The position numbers and the translations under genes are program-made. A DNA stretch of 64,000 nucleotides from Nymphaea colorata (taxonomy: Eukaryota; Streptophyta; Magnoliopsida; Nymphaeales; Nymphaeaceae), in NCBI RefSeq assembly GCF_008831285.2, contig NC_045145.1, forward strand, positions 23,124,802 through 23,188,801, read 5' to 3'. Position 1 is the first letter of the stretch. Every line of letters begins with the position of its first letter. Below the pieces are notes generated by a model, which was not told the origin of the DNA, did no database searches, and saw nothing but the letters and a program-made list of their open reading frames with translations. Shown one piece after another: positions 36,131-60,000 of the stretch.

Positions 36131-36730
36131 ACAAGATGATCGATCACCACTTGTCGATCAAATTTGTTTGGTTCGTTTACCAGTTCTACTAACCAGAAGA
36201 GGGTGGGAGGAGATGGAAATTAAATGGCATATCTATGTGTGTGCTCTGGCATATGATAGAATAAGTGCAAGTGGTGAGTTGGTAGGTTTCATGAATTGAC
36301 AATTGCTATGTGTAATGTTCCCTTTTGTTGGGGACAGTGAGTTCTTAAAATAAATTTTAATGGAAGGAGAAGATGATGTTGGTCAGGTTGGCATACTTGT
36401 CTCAAACTACCATTTGATTAAATTTTTAAAGGCGTTCATTGGGTCAGGGTAAATCAGCGTTTCTATGTGGTTGTTGGACCGGTTTAGCTAAAGGTTTGAC
36501 CCCTACACTTGGTTCAGTAGATTTGTTTTAAGACTCCAAGTTGGAGATGTAGAGTTTAATATAAGATCTGCCCACATCATATGTATCCAATAATATACAA
36601 CTGAAACTGCTTGCTCGAAGTATTATACCTGAATGATCCATATAAAACTATAATCTAGAACTCAACTAGGACAAAATACAGTTATTTGAATGCAGAGTCT
36701 AGAAAAAAATGTTGCACCTGAGAGCCCGGG
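36131..36730. other. Gene-free spacer
   Basis: Nothing coding or repetitive could be supported. Confidence 0.5.
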
Positions 36731-37407
36731 CTCGGCCTGATTAAAATAAAAAACACTTTTTAATATAAAATAAAAACTTTTAAATAAAAATATTATTAAA
36801 AAAATTAATTAGGCCGAGCCCAAGCTGGTTTTTTTTTTTTGCTCGAACAGGCCGGGTACTCGCCTCCATGGTCTATAGTTGTTTTGGAACCTAGTGGACC
36901 TATAATACACCATTCAACTTCATTTTTTCTGAATGCCACGACACTCTAAGCCTGAGCTCTAGCTCGGCCCGATTAAAATAAAAAACATTTTTTAATATAA
37001 AATAAAACTTTTAAATAAAAATATTATTAAAAAAATTAATTAGGCCGGGCCCAAACTAGTTTTTTTTTCTGCCCCAACAGGCCGGGTACTCGTCTCCATG
37101 GTCTATAGTTGTTTTGCGACCTAGTGGACCTATAATACACCATTCAACTTCATTTTTTCTGAATGCCACGACACTCTAAGCCTGAGCTCTAGCTCAGCCT
37201 GATTAAAATAAAAAGCATTTTTTAAATATAAAATAAAAACTTTTAAATAAAATATTATTAAAAAAATTAATTAGGCCGAGCCCAGGCTGTTTTTTTTTTT
37301 TTGCCCGAACAAGCCGGATACTCGTCTCCATGGTCTATGGTTGTTTTGGGACTTCAGTGGACCTATAATACACCATTCAACTTCATTTTTTCTGAATGCC
37401 ACCATTT
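36731..37407. repeat. Three tandem ~230-bp units, each with a GC-ended AT hairpin
   Basis: Units begin CTCGGCCTGATTAAAA at 36,731, CTCGGCCCGATTAAAA at 36,963 and CTCAGCCTGATTAAAA at 37,193 (periods 232 and 230); the third ends early at GAATGCCAC. Each has an inverted pair CTCGGCCTGATTAA ... TTAATTAGGCCGAG around an AT-only core, then a unique part with CTCCATGGTCTATAGTTG and ATACACCATTCAACTTC. The units are highly similar, so the amplification looks recent. They are related to the element in TTM intron 1. Confidence 0.9.
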
Positions 37408-38645: not shown

Positions 38646-39740
38646 TTTTTTTTAGGAGTAAAATAGTATTTTCAAATTTGTACTAAGGGCCAAATTTTTT
38701 TTCATAATTTTTACATATGTCAAAACAAAAATATTTCAAAATATAAGCATATTTTTTTTCTAAAATATGAGGGGAGGTGGCCATGTTCCCAGCCATCCGC
38801 CCGTGAAAAAAAAAAAATTGTAAGACTGTGTGGGCAACTGCACGCTCAGACAAGCCCCAAAATCGGTCTCCTACCGTCATCTATCAAACAAAGAATTTTT
38901 CGCATTTTAACTCAACGCTCTCGAGTTAGGTCTCTGTCCATTCGCTTGACGTTTCTTGCTTGAAATCAGATCGTTGAATTTTAACGAATGAAGGCGACTT
39001 AGGGCTTTAGCTAGTAGGCGACTGGTCACAGGTTCAAGCTTCACTACTGTCTTGATAGCAATGGCCATGGCCTGTATAGAAAAGCAAAGATTGTCAAAGA
39101 GAAGACCGTAGTTTCAATAAGGCTAAACGCAGGCATATCTCCCATTGGAGAATTTTCATCACATTGAACTTATGTTCTTGTGCTTCACCCAAACTGCTTC
39201 TGTGAACAATGTCTCTGCCTCAATCATTAGCTTCTTTTCTTTCAGTTCTTCCGGGCGCTACCATCAATCTTTAGCACCACTCAAAATGAAAAGAGTCCAT
39301 GAACAAGCCCGGTCACCAGTGGTGGAGTCACATGGTGGCTGGTGCGGACAGTTGCCCACACCAGCCTCACAAAATTAGTTTAATATATATGTCAATGTTT
39401 TGATGTATTTGATTGTTATACATATAAATGCCTCAAAGAAATTAAAGGTATTGAATGAGTGCCCCAACCAAAAAAAAACCTTCATAGCTTCTTTCATTTT
39501 GATTGTCTTGACTACGACTTGATTGTGGGCAGCAACAGTCAACAATGCGACAAATCAAACTCAACAGTAGTTGGTCGCCATTGCCGTTCAAGAAAGTAAA
39601 GCGTTCATGGTTTGATATTTTGATTCGAGAATGAAAGTTTCTGGAGTCGTTTGTTTGATAATTCTAATTTCTTAAAAACTGTGCATTTTGATTTTAAAAT
39701 TGGTAAGAGGCTGCCTTTTGGGACAAGAAGTCACTAGGGG
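38646..39740. repeat. Duplicated 1-kb block, copy 1 (left part)
   Basis: Starting at AATAGTATTTTCAAA, the block matches 42,020-43,150 nearly collinearly. Shared landmarks include ACTGTGTGGGCAACTGCA, GAAGGCGACTTAGGGCTTT, GATAGCAATGGCCATGGCC, AAGAGTCCATGAAC and AGGCTGCCTTTTGGG. It contains the common plant repeat motif GGTGGAGTCACATGG / GGCGGAGCCATATGG. The block is interrupted by the TIR element at 39,741-41,701 and resumes at 41,702. No gene is supported. Confidence 0.85.
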
Positions 39741-39790
39741 CCCGTTTGATGGGCGGGTGAAATCGTGTGGGGAGGGGAAAATCTATACGG

Positions 39791-39887
39791 GCGGGTGAAA
39801 TTTCACTCGCCCGGTTGAAAACCCAACAAACAGGGTGAAATTTCACCCGCTCAACGCAAAAGGGAGCGGGTGAAATTTCACCCGCTC
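39791..39887. repeat. Palindromes of the TIR sequence near the left end
   Basis: GGGTGAAATTTCACCC occurs as a perfect palindrome at 39,833-39,848 and within a longer perfect one, GAGCGGGTGAAATTTCACCC plus GCTC, at 39,864-39,887. An imperfect copy (GCGGGTGAAATTTCACTCGC) lies at 39,791-39,810. Each is two inverted copies of the subterminal GGGTGAAAT motif back to back. Confidence 0.85.
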
Positions 39888-40881
39888 GACTTCCTCCGCA
39901 GCTCTTCCTCCTTCGCATTCTCACTTCTCACCGTCGCTCACCCCGCTCGATTTCCGCTCTCACCATCGCTCACCCCGCTGGACTGCCGCTTTCACCATCG
40001 CTGCTCCGCCGTCGCAGCTCCCCTCCTCGGGCCGAGCCATTTCCAGCAGAAGGCCTTTCTTCCCCACCAAGCCTCCCATGCGTCCTCAGCAACTGAGTCC
40101 AGAGGTAATGGGGTTGAGAGAGGTGCTGTCAATGGTGGGCGGCAGCTGAGGAGCTTCCTCCGCAGTCGACGAGCTCCCTCGCGGGCATCGGGTTAGGGCT
40201 TTCCGGAGATGAGGCCATGGGAAGCAAGACTCGACGGTGCAGAGATTGGGGTTCTTCGCAATGGCCGCCGATGAGTTAACCCGTAGGCTCTCGAGGTAAA
40301 GGAGCTTGCGGCGAAAGAGGAGGCCAGAACCGGAGATGGGAGACGAAGAAAGGGAATTGGAGGACTTGAGCAGCACAACAGAATGAAGGTCAGGGATGGA
40401 GGCGAGGGATCCCCATGACGTCAATGAAGTTCATGGTGCCAAGATTGAGAAGTCAGTTTTGTCAAATCTGCAATAAATTATTTTTTTGGCATCCCTTGGT
40501 TCATCATTTTAGAATTTGTGTCTGTTCTTCTTTTCTCCCTTCAGTATGTTTCAAAATTACCAATGCATAGTTATTACATGCAGTTCTGGCTGGCCCTCTG
40601 TGGTGCATTCTCAATTGATTACATGCAGTTCTCGCTGGCCCTCTGTTCCACAGTTTATGTTGCAACCAGCTGTGGCACCCGGATTTGGAGCAGGCGAGGT
40701 AGAGGACGGGATGTGGGGAGCAGTTGGTTGGGGAAGTTGTGGAGAGAAAACAGGATGAGGAGGGGGAAGTTGTGGAGAGGAAACAGGATGAGGAGGGAGC
40801 GGGGAATTGCTGAACGGCAGCCTCAATGGTGGATGGGAGTTATCAAGGGGAAACTCGCGTTTGAGGATGAAGTTGGTCAGG

Positions 40882-41176
40882 TTTTATGCTGCTTGTGATG
40901 AAGTCCGAAGTGCAGAACACTAGTTTGATGAAATGCCTGAAGGGTCAGTTTCAGCAAATTAAAGTTGGTTTATGTTTCAACGGATGTTGTAGACATTATT
41001 GTTGGGCAAAAGCATTATTGTTGGGCTGGGAAGTTGGGTGTTCATTAGGATGTGTATGTGGCTTCTTCTCTGATCAATTTGTATGGGAAATGTGGGGCTG
41101 CTTGGGACGTGCACAAAGTGTTTGATAAAATGTTTTGCAGAGATGTTGGCTATTGGAATTCCATGAAAGGAACGAA
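40882..41176 (+). pseudogene. Pentatricopeptide-repeat (PPR) gene fragment, broken
   Basis: One frame from 40,882 reads FYAACDEVRSAEH, a stop, then FDEMPEGSVS, matching the end of one PPR motif and the linker to the next. After a frame change, from about 41,049, it reads DVYVASSLINLYGKCGAAW, then DVHKVFDKMFCRDVGYWNSM, an almost typical plant PPR unit (VASSLINLYGKCG, A-x-KVFDKM-x-RDV-x-WNSM). In-frame stops (TAG at 40,921, TAA and TAG further on) and the frameshift make it non-functional. It lies inside the TIR element, so it is probably captured cargo. Confidence 0.8.
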
Positions 41177-41701
41177 GGCATTCATTGTTGAGCATAAGGC
41201 TACAATACGAAGAAGAGCAGTTCTAATAAGGGGGAGGAGAGGAAGATGACTAAATTGATTTTTACAACTAAAAATTTGTCTGATACTGATATGGTGGTCA
41301 ATCCAATCTCTAAGATATGTTCCATAACAATTTCATTCAACACTTAGTCATTGATTTTTGTATTGCATATGCTAGCCCTCTTTTCATCAATACTTGGGAA
41401 GAACGTACCTATATCGTGCCGATCAACTGCCTTAGTGGTTGCAATAAAATCTATATCACGTCGATCAACTGCTTTAGTGGTTGCAATAAAATCATTGGAG
41501 ACGAGAAAAGAAAAAAAACAATATTTACCATGTTAAATTGTTCTTGTGCATCAAACAGGTTTAAATTTACCGCGTTAAATTCTTCTTGTGCATCAAACAG
41601 GGCTTCAGATTGGAAGAAGTAAAAATTTCATCCTATAAATTTTTCCAGAAAAATTTACCATGATAAATTTACCACGTTAAATTTCACCCGACAATCAAAC
41701 G

Positions 41702-42010
41702 AATGCGAACCTACTGGGGTGACATTATTATCATTCTGGTGCCTTATTCCTTTTGAGTTGCAGCAAACATGACAACTCGAGTTGAAACAAAAGCAACAAC
41801 AGCAGCCGCAAAAAAAGAACAGAAGAAAGAACAAGAAGAAGAAGAAACATTGCCATCTTCTAACCAGCCCTAGGGTTTTTGTGGTCCGATTTAGCTGCTT
41901 CTCTCCTAACTAGCTTTTTTTTTATGTAATAAATTGGTAAAAAGAGAAACTTTTATTGTTGTTAACCACTACTAATTCTTTTGGTCAATCCCGATCATCT
42001 GTAGCGTGGC
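41702..42010. repeat. Duplicated block, copy 1 (right part, after the TIR element)
   Basis: Resumes the block with AATGCGAACCTACT and continues with TGCCTTATTCC, GACAACTCGAGTTGAA and GAAGAAGAAACATTGCC. These match copy 2 at about 43,155, 43,326, 43,365 and 44,075, where extra sequence separates them. Confidence 0.7.
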
Positions 42011-44110
42011 AGAAATTTTTATAGGTGTACAATAGTATTTTCAAAATTTGTACTGAGGGCAAAAAAAATATTTTTCATAATTTTTACATATGTTAAAATA
42101 AAAATATTTCAAAATATAAGCATAATTTTTTTTTCTAAAATATGAGGTTAGCCGACCATGGCCCCAGCCATCTCCTCGTGAAAAAGAAAAATTGTAAGAC
42201 TGTGTGGGCAACTGCATGCTCAGACAAGCCCAAACATCGCTCTCCTATTGTCATCTATCAAACAAAGAATTTATTTCATTTTGACTCAACGCATTCACAG
42301 TAGGTATCTCCATTTGCCCGACCTTTTCTTGTTTGAAATCAGATCGTTGAATTTTAAGGTTATGAAGGCGACTTAGGGCTTTGGCAAGTAGGGTCATAGG
42401 TTCGAGCTTCACTACTGTCTTGATAGCAATGGCCATGGCCTGTATAGAAAACCAAAGTTTGTTAAAGAGAAGACCGTAGTTTCAACAAGGCTAAACGCAG
42501 GCATACTCCCGTTGAACAATTTACATGATCTTATGTTCTTGTGCTTGACCCAACCTGCTTCTGCTAACAATGTCTGCTTCAATCCTGTCAATGTCAGGTC
42601 CCCTTCCTTAGCTTCTTCTCTTTCAGTTCTCCCCGGCGCTACTGCCAATCTTTAGCACCATCGCTTAAGATGAAAAGAGTCCATGAACGAGCCATGTCAC
42701 CAGTGGCGGAGCCATATGGTGGCACACCAGCCTCACAAAATTAGTTTACTATATATGTTAATGTTTTGATACGTTTGATTGTTATACATATAAGTGTCCT
42801 AAATAAATTAAAGGTATTGAATGAGTGCCCCCACAAAAAAAAAAAATATCGCTTTGCTAGTGCTGGTCACCGCTCATAGTCTTGTCTACGACTTGATTGT
42901 GAACATCAATAGTCAACGATGAGACAAATCAAACTCAATAGTAGTTGGTCACCACTGCAGTTCAAGAAAGGAAAGTGTTTGATGGTTTAAAATTTTGATT
43001 CAGAATGAAAGTTTCAAAGACATGATTCTTCTTCAAATTGGAATGGTGTAGTTTGTTTAATGATTCTAATTTCTTAAAAATTGTGCATTTTGATTTTAAA
43101 ATTGGCAAGAGGCTGCCTTTTGGGGTAGAAAGTCAATAAGTGACCTTGCAATGCGAACCTACTAGGTGGCAAAACCAGAAAATTTTAACTGAGGGGCACT
43201 AACCGACTCAAGTTTGGTGTGGGCATCACATGCGGCTGGAGCTAGCTGAACCAAGGTTCAACTTAATCACAATATAAGATTTCAGGGGCTGGCGTGGGTA
43301 GTAGCGCACGCTATTTTTATTCTACTGCCTTATTCCTTTGAGCTGCAAATGGTAGCAAGCGTGACAACTCGAGTTGAAGACTCCACCCAAGCTTAAAGCA
43401 AAAGTTAGAACTTCAAATGCATAAGAGTAAGGCCTTGGGTGTTTTACTCTAAAGGCCGTTCCATCTACCTCAAAAACTGGATAATTTCATTTCCACAACA
43501 TTGGGATGGGATTATACAGCTGTGTGTTTTGGGGGAATATGTTTGTCCAAGCTTTGACCAGAGAATGAAATAAGAATATCAATATGAAATCTCCCTCTCT
43601 CCTCTCTCTCTTCTCTCTCTCTAAATTTATAGGAGAATTAGATAAATAAATTGTTGAGAAGCTCATTTACCTAACAAGATTCTGTCCAAGAGATTCTGCC
43701 CCCTTCCACCAACCCTATCGTGGTTTATTTGTAATTCCAATTAGAGCAGTTTGATGGGTCCAACCACGGATTGAAAAACTCGGCTCATTTTTTGCTTGAC
43801 CACAATTCAAAGTTGACTAAGCTTAAAAAGAGCTTTATATTGAGCTTCCGTTCCTAATTCAGTATACATAATTCATTCCTTAATAATTTTGTTTTTAAAT
43901 TAAAAAAAGGTCAAAAACCAGGACAATCAATCCATTAACAACTTTTTTTATAAGTTTCTTACGATTCTTCACAATTTTATATATGAGACTAAACTTTTTA
44001 AAATTCACTATTACATTATGCGTTGTCTTTCTTTAAATTGGTATAGTTTTGTTCTTTGAAGTAAAAAGAAGAAGAAACGTTGCCGTCTGATTCGTTCAAT
44101 ATAGAAATCC
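42011..44110. repeat. Duplicated block, copy 2 (lacks the TIR element)
   Basis: Second copy of the block at 38,646-42,010. It lacks the 1.96-kb TIR element but has about 145 extra bases at 43,165-43,310 and about 670 extra at 43,390-44,060, the latter including a CT-rich run near 43,590-43,622. No gene is supported; open frames at 42,251-42,648 are non-coding by all signs. Confidence 0.75.
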
Positions 44111-45539: not shown

Positions 45540-50626
<5,087 letters not shown>

Positions 50627-54069: not shown

Positions 54070-57000
54070 ATGGGTTGCACCTTTTCTGGGTTGAACGCAA
54101 TCTACGATGCTGTTAATGGAGGTGGGGACGTTTGGATCAATGAGAACAGGTTCAGAATAATCAGGCAGCTCGGAGAAGGTGGGTTTGCCTTTGTATATCT
54201 GGTGAAGGAGGTCACTCCAGAAGGATCGGGGAGCAAATTCAAAGACCCATCTCATGTTTCTGGTGAGTCTTTCCAGATTCCATGCGCTATATATAATCTG
54301 AATTTTTAGAACTTCTAAAAGTTTGGCTGTGATTCAGGCTTATCTTTGCACCTACAAGTGCTCTTTATTTCATTGTTTACAAGCGTGTTCCTTCGTTAGC
54401 ATTTTGGGTGCTTGAAGAATACATGAAGTATTTTTAATTAGGTTCACCATTCGATTTGTTTTTTCACATTGTTTTGGAAATAATGGGGGATATTATGAGA
54501 TCTGATCTTGGATTGCGAACTTTACCCTGCAAGGTAGGTAGGAATATATCGCGATATAGTGGTAGTTCTTTTTGCTTGTCAGCGGCATTTTTCATAGCGG
54601 GGGCAGTTCTTTTCTTGGATAATTTTGTCTCTATGAGTGCCAACAAAATTTTCAATAACAAACTCAGGAGTTTGTGGCTACTCTTTTCAATACTGTAAAC
54701 GCATTTTGATTTTTATCAGTTTGAGCTCAGTGCACATAACGGGTCCTTATGAGGATTTCTTTAATGACCTTGCCGGGAAGCTTGTTGCCTAGCTTGTTTA
54801 TCTGCATTTTAACAGAAATACCACCGAAGTTGCTTTTTGTGATCGATGAAACATGGAGGTTGATACACTGGTTTGGAGCCGAAACTGAAAGATCTGACTT
54901 TCCTTTAATATTGTTTTTCAAGTTCCATGCTTGCACATAAAGTGCCCAATGGGTATGAGTCTGAGGTTGCTTTTGATGCCATGGTTCCTTGACTATGGCA
55001 TCTTGGTTTCCTTTTCCGGCATTCATGGTTAAGGTTTCTGTCAAATGAATTTTATTATATATTATGCCAAGATCACGTATCATATTGATGGAGATTCATC
55101 ACCGTTTGATTTCCGAAGCATATATAGCATAGTAATGCCAGTTAGTAGCTAGTCGTGACTCGTATTAAAAGTACTTAGCCTTTCATTTAGTGAAGCACCG
55201 TCGACTGAGTAGAGTATGATTTCAATTACTTTTATTTTTCTGTTTTGCCTTTATGTTTACACGACTAATAATTTCACCGATGTAACAAATAGGTCATCAC
55301 ATTCATTCTCTTAACTTTGTCTTTCCTTAGACAATGGCATGTATGCAATGAAGAAGGTTTTGATCCAGTCAGGGGAACAACTAGAGTTGGTGAGGCAAGA
55401 AATAAGTGTTTCATCCCTTTTTAGTCATCCCAACCTGCTTCCTCTACTTGACCATGCTACTATCGCAGTGAAGGTACTTGCTTTAGATTACTTGTCTTTT
55501 CCCTTCCCCAGATATGTCTACTGTTGTATCAGCTTGATAGCATATACTGTTCAAGTGCTTGACATAGTGTGGAATTGTATGATTTTGGTATGGCAAGCAA
55601 TTTTACAAGAATTCAATTGTTTTATCCGCATTTCCTTAAAACTATTCATTTGGTGTATTACATGATTCATAAGTAATGACTGATCTCTCATTGTCTCACA
55701 TTGTTAGCTTCTATTCAAAGTGGGAACGAAATGTGTTAATGCTCTTGATGTACTTCTAAAAGAAGCTGTGTGGCTCCGAAAGCCAGATCTAGGGTATCAG
55801 GAATGAGTAGCATGCTTGTTTATATGGGGCTGGGATGTGCTTAAATCTATATTTTTTTGTTATTCTCTGCATATAAATGTGTACGTCATTTTAAACATGT
55901 TCTGCTTCATTGCATTTGTTGGTTTCCTCTTTAAAGTAATGCCATTTACTTTATCCAAATTCTGATAGCACGGAATCCAATAACTGTAGTTTGGCTTTCT
56001 GCTTCTGTGCATCTGTTTGCACCATGTTTCTTTTATGCTCATAATGCACATTCTCTGGCAGCTAGAATGAAATGCAGTTTGAAGTGTTGCACAGAGGACT
56101 TTAAACTAGCCTATATTCTTTTGAATTTATGTAGGGCCCTCAAGAAGATTCATGCCATGAGGCATATTTACTGTTCCCAGTTCATTTAGATGGGACCCTG
56201 CTTGACAATGTCAAAAGCATGAAAGCAAAGAAGGAGTACTTCCCTACTGTTACAGTTCTTCAAATTTTCCAACAGGTACCTTTTTACTGCATGGTACTAT
56301 ATGTATTTGATATGTATTATTCTTTTCAAGATTGAACACTTGTATTAATTTAGATATTTCTACTATTTTTGTTTATGATTTTCCCAAGAGAAGTGAAGCA
56401 GCAAAGTGAAACATGAACCTTTTGAGCATACTTTGAAGGTGTAACATGCTTATATTAGTGGAAAAAATTAATGATATGAAATGCCGATCTTGGGAGTGCA
56501 ACTCAAAGTAGTAGTAAAAGCAGTTCTGATGTTGCATTGAGGACAAGTAGGAGTGGGTCTCAATCATGTCAAACTAACAATCAGTCGGAGTTATTTGGTT
56601 GGCTAAATTATGACACAATAGCTTCCATAGACTTGGCATGATGCTGCTGCATGTAAAAGTGAAGGCCTGAAGGGTACTAAACTAGTGAAGCTTGTGGTGC
56701 ATAAGTCAATGTAAGCTACTTCGTTGAAGAGTAATTTTCTTTAAGTCATAGTAGATACTATATTTGGAGGTGCAACTGAGAAAACTGATACTCCATTTGT
56801 TGCGAGGAGTGAAAGAGCTGAGTGCCTTAAATATATGAGTTTCACATGTGAAGGCCTGAAGGGTACTAAACTAGTGAAGCTTGTGGTGCATAAGTCAATG
56901 TAAGCTACTTCGTTGAAGAGTAATTTTCTTTAAGTCATAGTAGATACTATATTTGGAGGTGCAACTGAGAAAACTGATACTCCATTTGTTGCGAGGAGTG

Positions 57001-60000
57001 AAAGAGCTGAGTGCCTTAAATATATGAGTTTCACATGTACACACTATATGGAGGGTCAATACCATGACAATTTCCTAACATGCCACATAGGAGGTTTGTT
57101 TTTTTCTTTTTTCCAGCTAAAAGACCTCATATGTGGCATGTTAGGAAATTGTTGTGGTATTGACCCACCATGCAGGGTCGAATTTTTTGTTTTTGTTTTT
57201 TCAGCTTGCTTCTCCTTGCATACAAACTGTACTACTTGACTTACCCAGCATAAGAATGTGCGGTCAAAAAGAGACCAAATAAATTAGACCTGTTTGGACT
57301 ATTTGTGACTGTTAAAGAACAGCCACATATTATATTTCTTGTATTTGTGATGAAGTGCAGAAAGCTGTCCATTGAAAAAACTAAGTGCAGAAATCTTTTT
57401 TGGAATAACTGAGTTGCGATACAGCTTTGTGCAGGACTGAAGTACATGCACAGTCTTGATCCTCCATATGCCCATAATGATGTTAAGCCAGGGAATGTCC
57501 TTCTAACACATAGGAAAGGGGAGATACCGCTTGCAGTTCTGATGGACTTTGGGAGTGCTGCACCTGCAAGGAGGGAAATACGTTCTCGTTCACAGTCATT
57601 GCAGTTGCAGGTATATCCAATTTAGTTCTCTCTATATGTGTCATGCAAATCCCTGCTGTTTCTGCTTTGGTCTGTCCTATTCTTTATCATCACATTAACA
57701 TGTTTCTTTTGATTTTGTAATAGGAAACAATTGTTGCAAAATACTTTCATTTGCTATTTTATGGATGACATGCACATTTCTAGGGCTTATGCTGCATTTA
57801 TTCATGGACCTAGATATTTCTTTAGGGGTATCCTTGTTGCTCTCATTTCAATTACTCTCTGTTAGCATGTCCTGTTGCACCTAGAGAACACTCGATCCCT
57901 GTCTCATGTCCACACTTTTTAACATCAACCAACTTATCCTTGTCGGTTCCAGGAATGGGCAGCTGAACATTGTTCCGCACCATATAGAGCACCTGAACTG
58001 TGGGACTGTCCAAGCCATGCTGATATTGACGAAAGAACTGATGTTTGGTCGTTGGGATGCACTCTCTATGCAATAATGTGAGAATGCTGTGTTTGTGAGT
58101 TTTAATTTTTTAAATGCACATTTTTTTCTTCATTTACAGCTTCCAGGATGTCTGTACTATAATTTGCGCTTCACTGTTTGGCATATATTCAGTTTTTGGC
58201 TGTTGTTTGTGATACTGTACAATTTACAGAATCCTGTTTACTTTTTAAATAAGATTATTCATAGCAAAGTAGAGTTCAATTCATTGGTCACTGAAATTAA
58301 ATGGAAAACTTGGGTTTTATATGTGCATGTGCCCTCATCATATCCAGCTTATTGTCATGTCTTACACATGTTTTATTCATGCATGTATTCTGCTATGCAC
58401 CACACATGATAAAGTAATATCTGATATGCTTATGACCACTATTTTTTTCTCTATCCATACTTGACTGGTTTAAGTGTCATCTTATGATGTTCTGAATGCC
58501 TTGACTCTGTAATGGAATCTGATTGCTTTTTATGAACATATAATTGCTAAAGTTCTTTATCATTTGCTAGTATTATAGAGTTCATGCCTTTCCTGTAAAT
58601 TTACATGCTTACAAATGCAAGTACTGCCCTTCATTTATGCACTTACATTTGGAAGTGTCAATATTCATTCCCCAGTGTCTTGTATGGAGCTGATAAGTAC
58701 ACCTGTATGCATTACCTTTGGTTCAATGTTCATGTGCAAACATAGAATGTTTTCTCATGTTAACCTACGACTTCAATGGCATATGAAAATCCTATTATTG
58801 CGTTGGAAACATTATTTTGTTAATTGCATGAAATCTGGATATGAAGTTTGAACAAATAGTTATATCTGCATCAAGACTCGTGTTGCATGCATTTAGAGGG
58901 TTGCATGCGCAAAGAGAAAGGATTCATTCCATAATTATTTTTAATATTTTTGCAGAATTTCCTACCTGATCCAGTGATACTTTCATTTGCCACTATTGAT
59001 GGCCTTTATCTTGGCTCTTTCGCTTGAGATTCGTAGGTGACAATTTGGAAGTGACATACATTATCCTAGTCCTATTTTCGTCTGCAAGTGTTTAAGTCAT
59101 TCATCCACACATATTTCAACAAAAGTTACACAAAATGACTAATGAAAAATCAACTATTAAATGATTGGTCTTTGAATAGCAGTTAAAGATTGTGATCAAC
59201 AAAGGATTTTGAATCCCAGGTTTCTCAGATTCTCTTCCAACTGAGGTTAGCAGTTGAAAAGGTCTGAAGACTCTGCACCATTAACAATCTTGGGAACCTG
59301 TCCGAGACAAGATCACCAAGCACTTCTATGATTCAGTTATAGAGGGTAAACTTCGAATGAGTGTATGTTTTTCACATGAAAACTAGAATCCTCATTAAAA
59401 AATGTAGTTGGAAGATTAATAAATCATATACCTATATAAAAACCACCATAATCACTGTAAAGAGTTATCCTTATGACACTAGATTTTCCAAATTTGTAAT
59501 TCAAAAAACATGATCTTATCCTAAATGGTTTTTGTATTGTTGCTTCCTGCTTCAGCTCTACTTATAAGTACCTCTTCTCTGACTTGTACTCTGATGAAAT
59601 GTATTTTCATTTCTTTAAGGCCACATACAGAATGCAATAAGGACCCATATTTTAAATTAGTCTTAGAAAATGTGTATGCATAGACACACACAGAGTCCAT
59701 TTTGCCATCAATCCATTGGGATACAGTCAGTGAAAATTAGAAACGAAGAAAGCAACAATGGACTTTGTTGCTATTTAACTTTCATGAAATATGAGCACAA
59801 GTGAGGGGCAGGGAGAAAACATGTATAATGCCTAGAGTTCCCACATTTTGGTCTCAAGTTGTTTTGCTCATGGGACATCTCAGCCATAAATTTTCTAAGT
59901 TGGATGAGGTCCATGGCAATTTCTTGTTGGCAAGCAAGTAGAAATCTGGTTCCTTTGGGTTTTTTTCACTACCTGTTTTAAGACGTCAAGTCTTCCTTGT

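What the first reader, a model, noticed from the sequence alone, without database searches (positions are those of the whole stretch)
39741..41701. Pack-type TIR element carrying a PPR gene fragment, with a near-empty site 3.4 kb away
A 2-kb element with 21-bp inverted ends (19 matches), no transposase, and a recognisable but broken PPR motif inside. Copying of host gene fragments by non-autonomous elements is known for Pack-MULEs and other Pack-TYPE elements. Here the termini look Tourist-like rather than Mutator-like. The PPR piece could be transcribed and feed small RNAs against the source PPR gene.
Basis: partly seen in the sequence, partly recalled or inferred. Interest (0 to 1): 0.7.

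Follow-up and report, generated by a model that had tools for sequence, protein, structure and literature searches.

The report
Mobile DNA carrying two PPR fragments
This is a non-autonomous plant jumping gene of the PIF/Harbinger type that carries broken pieces of two different PPR genes and sits at five or more places in its genome; it is a well-documented example of a known kind of element.

Summary
The element spans 39738-41701. Copies on contigs C6 (98%) and C12 (94%) have intact GGGCCCGTTTG...CAAACGGGCCC-like ends and TTA duplications. TWAGGGCCCGTTTGAT occurs 333 times in the genome, its reversed control 0 times. Of 13 inward-facing pairs among the 100 places listed, 12 have matching TAA or TTA; three enclose PF13359 (PIF/Harbinger) transposase matches, by coordinates. 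So it is a Pack-type PIF/Harbinger (Tourist-like) element. The window copy has probably lost 18 bp at its right tip. The 'near-empty site' is the second copy of a tandem duplication and carries a TAA. The 'PPR piece' is two: module A (40849-40941) matches an intact PPR gene on C10 (88 of 93 bases); module B (41004-41166) best matches another long open frame on C1, which was not read. Two element lineages fused near 40995; five copies share that junction. Both pieces are broken as coding sequence. A small-RNA role is untested. A new member of a known kind.

The parts
39738..41701 (+). Pack-type PIF/Harbinger (Tourist-like) element, 1964 bp as it stands, right tip truncated
   Evidence: copies C6 98% and C12 94% over the whole query with intact tips and TTA duplications
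39735..39737 (.). left target-site duplication, TAG here (TAA inferred from the duplicate site)
   Evidence: flanks against copy B, TAA at 43137-43139
39738..39763 (+). left terminal inverted repeat GGGCCCGTTTGATGGGCGGGTGAAAT
   Evidence: 26 of 26 identical to the right tip (reverse complement) of a transposase-bearing place on C5; TWAGGGCCCGTTTGAT found 333 times
41681..41701 (-). right terminal inverted repeat, outer 5 bp (GGCCC) missing
   Evidence: other copies read CAAACGGGCCC or a one-base variant, then TTA or TAA, except C7 with TGC
39788..39890 (.). left subterminal palindromes (GGGTGAAATTTCACCC)
   Evidence: DNA fold of 39732-39900 z -7.0
41523..41601 (-). right subterminal tandem repeats with inward copies of the terminal motif CCTGTTTGATG
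39891..40400 (+). GC-rich module shared with C6, C12, C10, C9 and three C13 copies; original source not identified
40849..40941 (+). PPR module A, from the 5' part of an intact PPR gene (C10:9882702-9884765); one stop inside
   Evidence: 88 of 93 bases identical
40994..41026 (+). fusion junction of two element lineages, with the 14-nt word CATTATTGTTGGGC at 40994 and again at 41013
   Evidence: same junction in 5 copies; C13 copies match to its left, C7/C3/C8b to its right
41004..41166 (+). PPR module B, from a second PPR gene (best candidate C1:13925790-13925969, open frame 814 codons, not read)
   Evidence: 93% nt, 71% aa over query 43-100; longer form in the C7 copy scores 52.5 bits against PPR, cut-off 25
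42016..43390 (+). duplicate of the flanks (copy B) without the element; TAA at 43137-43139
   Evidence: the far end is approximate

Best explanation
A non-autonomous PIF/Harbinger (Tourist-like) Pack element. Shown: its ends belong to a family of hundreds of tip sites with TAA/TTA duplications, some of which enclose PIF/Harbinger transposase matches. Shown: the interior is a mosaic of a left half shared with C13 elements and a right half shared with C7/C3/C8 elements, each half carrying a fragment of a different PPR gene, and five copies share one fusion junction. Inferred: fragments were captured by repair or template switching at element copies; two such elements then fused, as neighbours or by a template switch that left the short repeat at the junction; the fused element was moved in trans by a relative's transposase and inserted at a TAA in one copy of a tandem duplication. 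Inferred: an 18-bp deletion later removed the right tip, its duplication and 10 bp of flank, so this copy is probably immobile. The PPR pieces are interrupted or in different frames and most likely do nothing as protein.
For: Full-length copies with TTA/TTA. Of 8 related copies with both tips read, 7 have matching TTA or TAA; the three C13 copies share flanking letters and are probably one insertion, which makes it 5 of 6; C7 is the miss. 333 tip sites against 0 for the reversed pattern. Among the 100 places listed: 13 inward pairs under 8 kb, 12 with matching duplications; 0 outward, 0 forward tandem, 2 reverse tandem. Of 36 PF13359 matches in the same range 5 lie within 7 kb of an exact tip, all on the inner side, 3 inside complete pairs. 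C5 place: PF13359 at E 2.8e-11 and a right end 88.5% identical over 191 bp. Mosaic: against C13 95.5-96.8% from 39891 to 40995, then 44-53% up to the shared right end (84%); against C7 95.5-98.2% from 41004 on, and 39-47% between the shared left end (78%) and the junction. Module A 88/93 to an intact gene; module B 93% to a place in an 814-codon open frame.
Against: The window copy has no visible target-site duplication; the 18-bp deletion is inferred from copy B and the other copies, and TAG needs one substitution from TAA. The three complete transposase-bearing pairs were located by coordinates only; 31 of 36 PF13359 matches are not near an exact tip; the one transposase place read (C5) is broken, its left tip was not read, and its right flank is TTC, not TTA/TAA. 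One of 13 pairs has unlike duplications. The source of the GC-rich module was not found.
Confidence: 0.94

Rival explanations
1. A local PPR pseudogene (decayed host gene) that happens to lie between chance inverted repeats.
For: The PPR stretch has stops and frameshifts.
Against: The same 2-kb unit with the same ends is at C6 and C12 with unlike flanks; the PPR similarity found lies inside the element, in two modules with different relatives.
Confidence: 0.01
2. The element belongs to another TIR superfamily (Mutator, CACTA or hAT).
For: CACTAGGGG spans the left tip in the window; dense subterminal repeats, as recalled for CACTA elements.
Against: Other copies start at GGGCCC right after TTA or TAA, with 3-bp duplications; PF13359 transposase matches lie inside family members.
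Confidence: 0.02
3. The PPR pieces are selected cargo: the family is transcribed and gives small RNAs that regulate the two PPR source genes.
For: Modules keep 93-95% identity to the candidate source genes; a PPR antisense transcript was proposed for a grapevine CACTA element (PMC2528002, passages).
Against: No expression or small-RNA data; modules of only 93 and 163 nt; the modules are not clearly better kept than the rest: window against C6 98.6 and 99.4%, other segments 94.5-99.3%.
Confidence: 0.05

Closest known systems
Pack-PIF elements of maize and rice (Gisby and Catoni 2022, PMC8903248)
   Same: Non-autonomous PIF/Harbinger elements, mostly with TTA/TAA duplications, carrying gene fragments; growth by fusion of neighbouring elements
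   Different: Here two lineages, each with a fragment of a different PPR gene, fused and the junction is kept in five copies; the host is probably a water lily (inferred), not a grass
Pifvine-3 and Cactavine-5 of grapevine (PMC2528002)
   Same: Pifvine-3 are PIF elements with captured gene pieces; two Cactavine-5 copies carry part of a PPR gene
   Different: Those families contain transposase and are longer; the PPR capture there is in a CACTA element
Pack-MULEs of rice (recalled; named in PMC8903248 passages)
   Same: Non-autonomous TIR elements carrying host gene fragments
   Different: Mutator ends and 9-bp duplications, not met here

Membership tests
PIF/Harbinger superfamily | 3-bp TWA (TTA/TAA) target-site duplication | tested here: met
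   7 of 8 related copies with both tips read; 12 of 13 inward pairs. Not visible on the window copy itself (right tip lost)
PIF/Harbinger superfamily | terminal inverted repeats shared with transposase-bearing relatives | tested here: met
   C5 place: right end 88.5% over 191 bp, tip 26/26 (left tip not read); 3 PF13359 matches inside complete tip pairs by coordinates
PIF/Harbinger superfamily | DDE_Tnp_4 type transposase in the autonomous member | tested here: inconclusive
   PF13359 E 2.8e-11 at the C5 place, a broken copy; no intact member was read
PIF/Harbinger superfamily | second ORF (MYB/SANT-like, recalled) in the autonomous member | not tested
Pack-TYPE elements | TIRs, captured host gene sequence, no transposase | tested here: met
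   no transposase match in 10 ORFs or pieces
Pack-TYPE elements | more than one copy (cluster of related elements) | tested here: met
   five copies with the same junction and further relatives
Pack-MULE | Mutator ends with 9-bp duplication | tested here: not met
   3-bp duplications
CACTA | CACTA/TAGTG termini | tested here: not met
   other copies begin TTA|GGGCCC or TAA|GGGCCC

The most novel reading that the evidence does not exclude
In this early-diverging flowering plant one PIF/Harbinger family has taken up PPR genes repeatedly (fragments of one gene lie in several elements, one with a frame open for 294 codons at C6) and shuffles PPR repeats from different genes into new combinations that could become new organelle RNA-binding proteins or small-RNA sources.
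Probability: 0.08. Interest if true: 0.6.

Novelty: new member of a known kind. Interest (0 to 1): 0.36.

Why it matters
It gives a case in which the steps of gene-fragment capture can be read in one genome: an identified source gene and a candidate for the other, the two separate lineages before fusion, the junction with a short repeat beside it, and later copies. That makes capture models for TIR elements (fusion of neighbours against template switching) testable. The PPR content is of mild interest because PPR genes act on organelle RNAs (recalled), but no function is shown.

Tried and rejected
Rejected: CACTA and hAT readings of the left tip, and a 3-bp ACT duplication with the element at 39736-41712, since AATGCGAACCT is flank, present in copy B at 43150. 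Not used as proof of nested elements: the internal CCYGTTTGWTG motifs, because the pattern was drawn from the same motifs. The exact scan of viral contigs for the ends gave 0. A 210-kb sample of the genome (21 stretches) held no exact tip; its best match was 34 bp at 85%, which read afterwards looks like a diverged tip. Relatives of the GC-rich module: three places were read, no clear source gene. Paper searches. Tool requests not answered because the genome search machine was busy: 4, 6, 11, 14, 18, 21, 25, 29, 32, 36, 39, 44, 48, 53, 56, 64, 68, 71, 73, 75, 76, 79, 81, 82, 85, 87, 88, 90, 91, 93, 95, 96, 99, 100, 102, 108, 111, 114, 115, 117, 119, 120, 122, 124, 126, 127, 132, 135, 137, 143, 145; answered: 59, 65, 66, 104, 130, 139. 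Scripts used wholly or partly to wait: 35, 43, 47, 55, 80, 86, 89, 98, 103, 113, 116, 118, 121, 123, 125, 134, 136, 144. One search failed for a search term that was too short.

Full report
Setting. The window is C8:23124802-23188801 of an assembly of 407,766,735 bases in 783 contigs. That fits the 409-Mb water lily Nymphaea colorata, 804 scaffolds, 14 pseudo-chromosomes (PMC7015852, passages seen); the species name is my inference.

The observation. Inverted ends of 21 bp with 19 matches lie at 39743-39763 and 41681-41701. Forty simulated windows have a mean of 0.1 such pairs and at most 2; the real one has 5, this one included. The broken PPR motif is real. The left subterminal region is strongly palindromic.

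The 'near-empty site'. The flanks of the element belong to a tandem duplication, 38647-39736 against 42016-43138, 87.2% identical over 1055 ungapped columns, K2P 0.141. The right flank AATGCGAACCTACT resumes exactly at 43150 in copy B. Between the two flanks copy B has TAAGTGACCTTGC where the window copy has TAG, the element, and then the flank at once. No target-site duplication is visible on the window copy.

Other copies settle the family. A copy on C6 (98%) reads CTATTA|GGGCCCGTTTGATG...CAATCAAACGGGCCC|TTAAGT, and one on C12 (94%) reads CTTTTA|GGGCCCG...CAAACGGACCC|TTAGG. Further relatives: three C13 copies, C3 and C10 have matching TTA or TAA; C7 has TTA against TGC; for C9 and C8b only the right end was read. 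The three C13 copies share flanking letters and are probably one insertion. So the true tip is at 39738, and the window copy lacks GGCCC, the TAA and 10 bp of flank on the right: an 18-bp deletion, inferred.

Family size and partner. TWAGGGCCCGTTTGAT occurs 333 times (159 forward, 174 reverse), the reversed pattern 0 times. The tool listed 100 of these places. Among neighbours under 8 kb apart there are 13 inward pairs, 12 with matching duplications; 0 outward, 0 forward tandem and 2 reverse tandem. One search lists 150 scored PF13359 matches of 307 candidates; 36 lie in the range covered by the 100 places. Of these 36, 5 are within 7 kb of an exact tip, all on its inner side, 3 of them inside complete pairs of 6347, 5957 and 4342 bp; the other 31 are not near an exact tip. 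One transposase place was read, C5:6567250-6568700: it has the end of a PIF transposase (PF13359 E 2.8e-11) in shifted frames, and a right end 88.5% like this element's over 191 bp, whose last 26 bases equal the window's left tip. Its flank reads TTC rather than TTA, and its left tip was not read.

The PPR stretch is two captures. A DNA search with 40861-41175 gave 25 matches. They fall into a left part (to 40995), shared with the C13 copies and in part with a PPR gene on C10, and a right part (41004-41166), shared with six further places, five of which also carry the element's right end (C7, C3, C8, C1:5999677, C4); the sixth is C1:13925789. Five copies have both parts: the window, C6, C12, C10 and C9. 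Gene A at C10:9882702-9884765 is open for 687 codons (671 from the first Met), with PPR repeats and an E motif; module A differs from it at 5 of 93 bases. Other places hold larger, internally deleted pieces of the same gene: L046, which has both element ends by similarity, broken at 543/1283; L047, with a tip next to a TAA, L053, with a tip at C1:21348300, and L052, not shown to lie in an element, share a break near 496/1396. Module B has its best long-frame match at C1:13925790-13925969, open for 814 codons, 93% by DNA and 71% by protein over query residues 43-100, part of which I had joined across frames; that frame was not read. Module B in its C7 form is only 42% identical to gene A at best, so it has a different source.

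Fusion. In an alignment of 11 sequences the window matches C13 at 95.5-96.8% from 39891 to 40995, then 44-53%, and again 84% in the last 200 bp, the common right end. It matches C7, C3 and C8b at 93.8-98.2% from 41004 on, 39-47% before the junction, and 77-78% in the left 150 bp, the common left end. At the junction lies CATTATTGTTGGGC, repeated 19 bases downstream; I infer a templated filler, though its last four letters also stand in the C7 sequence. Microhomology and template switching are described for animal Pack-TIR elements (PMC8277862, abstract and passages). Fusion of neighbouring elements is described for Pack-PIF and Pack-Mariner (PMC8903248, section 9). My data do not decide between the two.

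What is known. Pack-PIF elements are published (PMC8903248, passages and section 9). Grapevine PIF elements with captured gene pieces, and CACTA elements with a PPR gene fragment, are published (PMC2528002, passages). Pack-MULE features are recalled in part. This is therefore a new member of a known kind. What I find unusual is how fully the history can be read and how often PPR pieces appear in this family; I made no claim that this is absent from print.

Function. Module A has a stop; module B is in another frame and is cut short in the window copy compared with C7 and C3. I think the element is probably inert here. No expression data were available.

Noticed in passing
57048-57171: Short palindromic MITE-like stretch; about 79% complementary to itself over 127 columns, ends GGGTCAATACCATGACAATTT.
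   Followed up: no
36722-37402: About three tandem copies of a roughly 230-bp unit, 92% alike.
   Followed up: no
56659-57038: Exact tandem duplication of 191 bp; could be recent or an assembly artefact.
   Followed up: no
L046 (C6:10707900-10708700): Another element of the family in which two parts of PPR gene A are joined; the tool gives a frame open for 294 codons. A candidate new chimeric PPR reading frame.
   Followed up: partly
L052, L047, L053: Three places share the same internal break (near 496/1396) of PPR gene A, which points to one shortened copy that later spread.
   Followed up: partly
39891-40400: GC-rich module with diverged relatives on C8, C3 and C9 that share the words HFQQKAFLPHQ; source gene not identified.
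   Followed up: partly
L016:770-810 (C1 near 29.0008 Mb): Tip-like stretch GGGGCCTGTTTGATGGGC in a random sample of the genome, perhaps a diverged relative.
   Followed up: no
45540-45630: First exon that looks like agmatine deiminase (recalled, not searched), just downstream of the duplicated region.
   Followed up: no
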